A stretch of DNA of 64,000 nucleotides, taken from Opisthocomus hoazin. Lineage: Eukaryota; Chordata; Aves; Opisthocomiformes; Opisthocomidae. The position numbers and the translations under genes are program-made. This document shows, piece after piece, positions 7,636 to 40,193 of this stretch; positions within the stretch are counted from its first letter, which is position 1, and the number at the start of each line of letters is the position of its first letter. Under the pieces are notes generated by a model. It worked only from the letters and a program-made list of their open reading frames with translations. It searched no databases and was not told the DNA's origin. Location of the stretch: positions 6,127,823 through 6,191,822 of the forward strand of contig NC_134420.1 of the NCBI RefSeq assembly GCF_030867145.1, read 5' to 3'.

Positions 7636-7904
7636 CCAGAGCAGCACTATTTGCGGTTCATGCCCTGCTTCCCCAGACGTGCGACGGACTGCGTGAAGGC
7701 CGTGCCCCTTCCCCACGCGAACGGTACAAATGGATCGGCGACTCTCGCCCCAGCGCGCAGCCAGCCCCCCGGCGCGGCCCCGGGATGGCCCCGAAGAGGG
7801 GCGCGAAGCCGCCCCCCCTCCACATCCCCCCGAGACGGCCGCGGGTGGGAGGCGGGGGCGCGGCTCCCCGCGGGCTGCGGAGCGCGGTCCGCCCCCGTGG
7901 GCGC

Positions 7905-7925
7905 GGCGCTGTCCGCGGTGCTGAA
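7905..7925 (-). promoter_or_regulatory. RE1/NRSE element (REST site), copy 1
   Basis: Read on the - strand, the 21 bases hold both RE1 half-sites with canonical spacing: TTCAGCACC, a two-base spacer, then GGACAGCGCC. Only one base, in the spacer (A to G), differs from the commonly quoted consensus. RE1 elements are bound by REST, which silences neuronal genes outside neurons. It lies about 690 bases upstream of the start codon of a neuronal gene, inside its CpG island. Confidence 0.85.
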
Positions 7926-7932
7926 GGGACGC

Positions 7933-7953
7933 GGCGCTGTCCGCCGTGCTGAA
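7933..7953 (-). promoter_or_regulatory. RE1/NRSE element (REST site), copy 2
   Basis: A second RE1 in the same orientation, 28 bases from copy 1. On the - strand it reads TTCAGCACG, spacer, GGACAGCGCC. It differs from copy 1 at a single base and from the quoted consensus at two bases, both at or next to the half-site spacer. The strongest contact half, GGACAGCGCC, is intact. Confidence 0.8.
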
Positions 7954-8397
7954 GGGGGCCGGGCGCCCTGAGGGTGCCGCTCGCCGCCGCCGCAGCCGCC
8001 TCCTCGGGACGAGCCCTGCGCGGCCGCGGAAGGAGCCCCGCTGCGCGGAAGAGCGGGCGGGAGGGGGGCTCCTCGCCGTCTGCGGCATTCAGCCAGCGGT
8101 TCCGGGGCGCGGGGTGCTTCGCAGCTCCCTGCCCTCGGCGGCGAATCGCACCCCTCCCCCTCCAGCTCCGCAGCCGGGGATACCGCCAGCGCCACGCCGA
8201 GAGCGCTTCGGCACGCTCCCGCGCCGGGACCTCCGTCCCCTCCCAGCCGGGCATGGCCCTGCCGCCACCCGCCGCACCCTGCGAGGCCGAGTAGACTTTC
8301 TGACCGTGCCCGGCAACTCCGCGCTGCCGGGAAACCCGGGGGCCGCCCGCCGCGCGCTCAGGCTCCCCGCTCGCCGCCGCACTCAGGCGCGCTCCCT

Positions 8398-8413
8398 CCC
8401 CCCCCCCCCCCCC
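8398..8413 (+). repeat. Poly-C run (16 C)
   Basis: An uninterrupted C homopolymer within the CpG island, closely followed by a CA-rich stretch at about 8445-8455. It is likely to be length-variable and error-prone in sequencing. Confidence 0.9.
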
Positions 8414-8512
8414 ACCCCGGCTCCGCACGCCGTCTCCCCCTCGCACACACACACGGGCGCGCACGCTTCCTCCCGCTCTCCCTCCTCCCGGAGGTGCGCT
8501 GCCAGCCGCTTG

Positions 8513-8566
8513 ATGAGGGGGAAAAGTTAAAGAGATGGGACCGATATGAACCATCGCCGCTCGTAG
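8513..8566 (+). promoter_or_regulatory. Cluster of three short upstream ORFs in the presumed 5' UTR
   Basis: Three ATG-started mini-ORFs end before the SLC17A6 start: 8513-8530 (MRGKS), 8535-8549 (MGPI) and 8546-8566 (MNHRRS). The last two overlap in different frames. A fourth, 8253-8294, would also be present if transcription starts upstream of it. They lie 50-100 bases before a main ATG in good context, so they could modulate translation by reinitiation. This depends on the transcription start, which is not known. Confidence 0.45.

Positions 8567-8615: not shown

Positions 8616-40193
<31,578 letters not shown>

What the first reader, a model, noticed from the sequence alone, without database searches (positions are those of the whole stretch)
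7902..7957. Tandemly duplicated RE1/NRSE (REST site) in the VGLUT2 CpG island
Two near-consensus RE1 elements, same orientation, repeat with a 28-base period about 0.7 kb before the SLC17A6 ATG. Each has TTCAGCAC and GGACAGCGCC with canonical spacing; mismatches fall at or beside the spacer. RE1 sites usually occur singly, so a tandem pair could allow two REST molecules to bind and sharpen neuron-restricted expression, or could allow copy-number change by slippage. The sequence is seen directly; REST binding to RE1 is established knowledge; double occupancy is inference. The 28-base period is about 2.7 helical turns, so the two proteins would sit on different faces.
Basis: partly seen in the sequence, partly recalled or inferred. 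Interest (0 to 1): 0.75.

Follow-up and report, generated by a model that had tools for sequence, protein, structure and literature searches.

The report
Paired REST silencer sites at VGLUT2
A short DNA switch that keeps nerve-cell genes off in other tissues has been copied side by side in front of a glutamate-transporter gene; the pair is real and probably works, but such pairs are already known and turn up at many other places in the same genome.

Summary
The repeat is real. Two 28-bp units (7902-7929, 7930-7957; 26 of 28 identical) each carry a canonical 21-bp RE1 on the minus strand, 663-711 bp before the SLC17A6 ATG (8616) in a CpG island. Copy 1 (7905-7925) matches all 19 consensus positions; copy 2 (7933-7953) has one change, C to G at position 9. 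Chance is excluded (0 of 100 shuffles; about 1e-6 expected). The genome encodes REST with its DNA-reading fingers. Best reading: an ordinary REST silencer, strong in copy 1, weaker in copy 2. The premise that RE1 sites usually occur singly does not make it special: 12 of 85 near-perfect RE1 loci here hold two or more sites, 13 of 13 neighbouring pairs on the same strand; a tight-pair scan finds 28 direct pairs at 23 loci and no convergent pair. Same-strand repeats are published as the most strongly bound REST regions (PMC4371837), and EMSA supports two REST molecules on tandem sites (PMC8096226). Copy 2 is the only one of 98 sites without C at position 9. New member of a known kind; occupancy, conservation and copy-number variation are untested.

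The parts
7902..7929 (-). 28-bp unit, copy 1
7930..7957 (-). 28-bp unit, copy 2; 26 of 28 identical to copy 1; of the 7 non-motif bases 6 are the same
7905..7925 (-). RE1 copy 1, TTCAGCACCGCGGACAGCGCC, perfect at 19 of 19 specified positions
7933..7953 (-). RE1 copy 2, TTCAGCACGGCGGACAGCGCC, 18 of 19; G at position 9
7642..8560 (.). CpG island holding the pair (limits set by me): G+C 0.76, CpG observed/expected 0.98
8616..8701 (+). SLC17A6 (VGLUT2) coding part of exon 1, followed by GT splice donor
   Evidence: gene name from recalled protein sequence

Best explanation
A canonical REST silencer of SLC17A6 whose 28-bp unit was copied head to tail. In non-neuronal cells and progenitors one REST molecule binds copy 1 firmly through its zinc fingers in the major groove and recruits corepressors that shut the CpG-island promoter. 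A second REST can sit on copy 2, 7 bp away and pointing the same way, with lower affinity because position 9 is G; the pair raises time-averaged REST occupancy. In neurons REST falls and the gene opens. Shown here: the sequence, relative site strength by matrix, the gene, a REST gene in the genome. Inferred: binding, order of affinity, double occupancy, repression.
For: Two canonical RE1 far beyond chance in a CpG island 0.7 kb before a neuronal transporter gene. REST exons found at C5 with all finger exons present, finger 6 reading FKCDQCSYVASNQHEVTRHARQVH. The genome uses the same architecture widely: 12 of 85 near-perfect loci multiple, 13 of 13 pairs same strand, 28 direct pairs against 1 for the reversed-pattern control and 0 convergent. 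Published: strongest REST ChIP regions have same-strand RE1 repeats (PMC4371837); tandem sites give two EMSA bands (PMC8096226); strong motifs silence in reporter assays (PMC9903721, passages).
Against: No binding, expression or conservation data for this locus. Copy 2 lacks C9, which 97 of 98 near-perfect sites keep, and reaches 80% of the maximum with my small matrix. SLC17A6 was absent from the main texts of the REST papers in which I looked for it: PMC1794552, PMC10257853, PMC4371837, PMC2573930, PMC9903721. The divergent-pair control did not complete.
Confidence: 0.75

Rival explanations
1. One working site plus a passenger: the duplication is neutral, copy 1 does the work, and copy 2 is drifting under relaxed constraint.
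For: Copy 2 is the only one of 98 near-perfect sites changed at position 9; its matrix score is lower.
Against: The other 18 specified positions of copy 2 are intact; finger 6, which reads position 9, is not essential for binding canonical sites by EMSA (PMC8096226).
Confidence: 0.35
2. Chance resemblance: a tandem repeat of a GC-rich island that happens to look like RE1, with no REST role.
For: GC-rich islands carry simple repeats; exact RE1 cores also occur 44 times in 257 Gb of prokaryotic contigs, which have no REST.
Against: That is about one per 6 Gb; expectation for this island is about 1e-6 and 0 of 100 shuffles of the window matched twice.
Confidence: 0.02
3. Assembly artefact: the second copy was made in assembly.
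For: Short GC-rich tandems can be misassembled; no reads were available.
Against: The copies differ at 2 of 28 bases, and direct RE1 pairs with other units and periods occur at 22 further loci.
Confidence: 0.03
4. A slippage-prone 28-bp repeat whose copy number varies and so tunes VGLUT2 silencing between individuals.
For: Head-to-tail repeat; three- and four-copy RE1 arrays of period 23-25 and about 30 exist elsewhere in the genome.
Against: Only two copies, already differing at two bases; no population data.
Confidence: 0.08

Closest known systems
Same-strand repeated RE1 regions in mouse ES cells (PMC4371837, section 7 read)
   Same: several complete RE1 in the same strand orientation within one region
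   Different: those are bound by REST in ChIP-seq; here binding is unknown, and the list of regions could not be opened
Tandem NRSEs of CELSR3 and PCDH-gamma-a (PMC8096226, section 22 read)
   Same: neighbouring NRSEs in one orientation, a short gap (9 bp in CELSR3, 7 bp here)
   Different: CELSR3 sites are noncanonical with 11-bp internal gaps; here both are canonical with 2-bp gaps; two EMSA bands shown there, not here
Snap25 and Celsr3 tandem canonical RE1 (PMC2573930, passages); NSF with four NRSE in under 100 bp (PMC1794552, passages)
   Same: clustered RE1 beside neuronal genes
   Different: other genes and species; spacing not compared
Other direct RE1 pairs in the same genome (L054-L064, L065-L092)
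   Same: same strand, mostly CpG-rich surroundings
   Different: other periods (21-49 in the tight scan); the window ties with C21:2246802 for fewest mismatches, 1 in all

Membership tests
canonical RE1/NRSE | left half TTCAGCACC and right half GGACAGCGCC separated by 2 bp | tested here: met
   copy 1: 19 of 19; copy 2: 18 of 19
canonical RE1/NRSE | C at position 9 (strongly preferred, not obligatory) | tested here: inconclusive
   copy 1 has C; copy 2 has G, the only such case among 98 sites; effect on binding unknown
canonical RE1/NRSE | bound by REST, encoded in the same genome | tested here: inconclusive
   REST finger exons present; binding not testable with these tools
canonical RE1/NRSE | silences a linked promoter in non-neuronal cells | not testable with these tools
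   needs reporter or knock-out
canonical RE1/NRSE | conserved in orthologues | not testable with these tools
   no other vertebrate genome held; G000 has no relatives in the tool
tandem same-strand RE1 repeat | two or more complete RE1, same strand, close together | tested here: met
   7-bp gap, both minus strand
tandem same-strand RE1 repeat | each site bound by its own REST molecule | not testable with these tools
   EMSA or ChIP-nexus needed
noncanonical NRSE (half-sites 7-9 bp apart) | left half then right half with a 7-9 bp gap | tested here: not met
   the 7-bp gap lies between a right half and the next left half (sequence)

The most novel reading that the evidence does not exclude
RE1 silencers grow and shrink by micro-duplication that keeps orientation, so REST dosage at a promoter is set by array length and by how far each copy has drifted. 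At VGLUT2 a perfect and a position-9-weakened copy form a graded two-step switch whose copy number may vary between individuals or species.
Probability: 0.12. Interest if true: 0.5.

Novelty: new member of a known kind. Interest (0 to 1): 0.24.

Why it matters
It is a compact natural test of whether two adjacent REST sites repress more than one, with a built-in single-base difference at a position read by one finger. It also shows that tight same-strand RE1 arrays are frequent in this 1.48-Gb genome (bird-like by size and contig pattern, my inference). The SLC17A6 case alone changes little.

Tried and rejected
Viral contigs: the tandem pattern gave 0 matches and the single core 1 (that locus was not examined). 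Prokaryote contigs served as a chance baseline. No REST zinc-finger structure appeared among the 19 PDB sequences matched at E up to 1e-20; their names are other zinc-finger proteins. A bacterial promoter scan of the interval was uninformative. Naming genes beside the other arrays from reading frames worked for one (L062: Pfam Filament PF00038; neurofilament heavy by eye). L055 looked like LHX3 by eye, without a Pfam match. The others were not named. The pairs in L057 and L058 look like twins but align only over about 104 bp around the sites. A noncanonical reading across the two copies was rejected from the order of halves.

Not obtained: the divergent-pair scan (sent) and the count of single cores did not complete; a direct-pair scan at 52-81 bp was not repeated. 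The orientation statement therefore rests on 13 of 13 pairs in the list and on the convergent scan.

Full report
Observation. The interval 7902-7957 holds a two-copy tandem repeat of 28 bp; the units are identical at 26 of 28 positions. Read on the minus strand each unit holds a 21-bp RE1: 7905-7925 with no mismatch and 7933-7953 with one mismatch among the 19 specified positions. The gap between the sites is 7 bp. No further site with up to 3 mismatches occurs in the 64 kb and 0 of 100 shuffles reach two. The looser consensus NTYAGMRCCNNRGMSAG with one mismatch is less specific: 11 of 100 shuffles reach two. A Markov model of the island without the repeat expects 1.0e-6 to 1.9e-6 sites with up to 1 mismatch, and 0 of 300 simulated islands held a tandem of period 20-60 at 90%. 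In 257 Gb of prokaryotic contigs, which lack REST, the exact core was found in 44 stretches, once in each.

Site strength. I had no JASPAR matrix, so I built a small one from 14 distinct sites in a table of PMC1794552 (passages seen). Copy 1 scores 30.3 and copy 2 25.6 of a possible 31.9; the next best site in the window scores 12.4. Those 14 sites were themselves predicted by profile, and one of them is identical to copy 1, so the matrix is only a yardstick. PMC11025195 kept canonical sites at 84% or more of the maximum with MA0138.2 (passages); copy 2 reaches 80% with my matrix, which is not the same scale.

Surroundings. The sites lie in a CpG island (G+C 0.76, observed/expected 0.98), 663 to 711 bp before an ATG at 8616; later frames carry the VGLUT2 transporter, the last ending at 40193. 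The gene name rests on recalled protein sequence. No transcription start was mapped. The window is part of G000, 1.48 Gb in 415 contigs.

The protein that would read them. The missing middle, finger 5, lies between them as a separate exon reading [29 protein letters not shown]. Finger 6 reads FKCDQCSYVASNQHEVTRHARQVH. In the simulations of PMC8096226 (section 23 read) Arg349 of finger 6 contacts the G opposite position 9; that the arginine in VTRH is this residue is my recalled numbering.

How unusual is a pair? One search counts 231 sites with up to 2 mismatches against 3 for the reversed pattern; its listing stops early, but all 98 sites with 0 or 1 mismatch come before the cut. Grouped at 300 bp these form 85 loci. 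Twelve hold more than one site, and 13 of 13 neighbouring pairs are on the same strand, with spacings 28, 33, 33, 35, 38, 40, 42, 46, 49, 54, 61, 75 and 265. The window has the smallest spacing in that list. A scan for two exact cores 21-51 bp apart in direct orientation gives 28 matches against 1 for its reversed control, at 23 loci, 17 of them with a pair in which both sites have 2 mismatches or fewer. Periods run from 21 to 49, so 28 is not the tightest; several short ones are multiples of three and might be coding, which I did not test. The convergent scan gives 0, with 0 in its control. The divergent scan did not complete. The window pair ties with C21:2246802 for fewest mismatches in that scan.

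Origin. At the window 6 of the 7 non-motif bases of the unit are shared and nothing beyond it is (3 of 10 on either side), so a 28-bp duplication is likely but rests largely on the motif itself. L054 (28 of 30 bases on one side) and L063 (30 and 21 of 30) share flanks more widely; at the other clusters of the 12 only the motif is clearly shared without gaps. The free dinucleotide at positions 10-11 is the same in 10 of 13 neighbouring pairs against 3.7 when shuffled, p = 0.0003. This suggests that clusters arise by duplication and the sites are kept while flanks drift. Caveats: the two pairs of one triple are not independent, and shuffling ignores local composition and any mild constraint on these two bases.

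Copy 2. Position 9 is C in 97 of 98 near-perfect sites; the exception is copy 2 of this window. PMC8096226 reports C9 as highly conserved in 3232 canonical sites and read by finger 6, yet finger 6 is not essential for binding canonical sites by EMSA. So copy 2 is probably weaker, by an unknown amount. This fits both a graded pair and a passenger copy.

Known relatives. PMC4371837 (section 7 read) states that regions of highest REST enrichment contain multiple complete RE1 repeats in the same strand orientation. PMC8096226 (section 22 read) shows two shifted bands for tandem sites and concludes that each site is bound by one REST. PMC2573930 (passages) reports tandem canonical RE1 near Snap25 and Celsr3. 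PMC1794552 (passages) finds 75 of 566 genes with more than one NRSE, and four in NSF within 100 bp. PMC3529185 (passages) uses two synthetic sites in tandem. PMC9903721 (passages) finds a minimal motif strength for silencing. So the architecture is known. My searches for SLC17A6 or VGLUT2 with REST, RE1, NRSF or NRSE listed papers; the passages I read from six of them or their neighbours do not tie REST to an RE1 at this gene. Most papers on those lists were seen only as listings, and supplements could not be opened, so I make no claim that this site is unpublished.

Geometry. 28 bp is 2.67 turns at 10.5 bp per turn. But PMC8096226 describes fingers 3-8 as wrapping the duplex in the major groove, so the two proteins are better seen as following each other along the groove than as sitting on two faces. 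In the 28 direct pairs the periods spread over many phases of the helix, which gives no hint of a required phase.

Verdict. A real, probably working REST silencer with a duplicated site; a new member of a known kind. The least ordinary points are the pairing of a perfect with a position-9-changed copy and the wealth of same-strand arrays in this genome.

Noticed in passing
L062 3524-3635 (G000:C13:18343223-18343334): Four same-strand RE1-like sites at steps of 31, 30 and 30 bp (1, 2, 1 and 2 mismatches) beside intermediate-filament exons, neurofilament heavy by eye.
   Followed up: partly
L057 3453-3513 and L058 3428-3486 (G000:C2 and C4): Two RE1 pairs on different contigs with the same two variant sites in the same order, 40 and 38 bp apart; only about 104 bp align. 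Possibly old paralogues.
   Followed up: partly
G000:C15:13798148, C7:5511282, C41:78572978, C41:78903753: RE1-like arrays of three or four copies at a regular 23-25 bp step.
   Followed up: no
window 8546-8566: Short upstream frame MNHRRS* 50 bp before the SLC17A6 ATG.
   Followed up: no
window 8394-8418: C-rich run (25 bases, 83% matches) in the CpG island, a possible length-variable tract.
   Followed up: no
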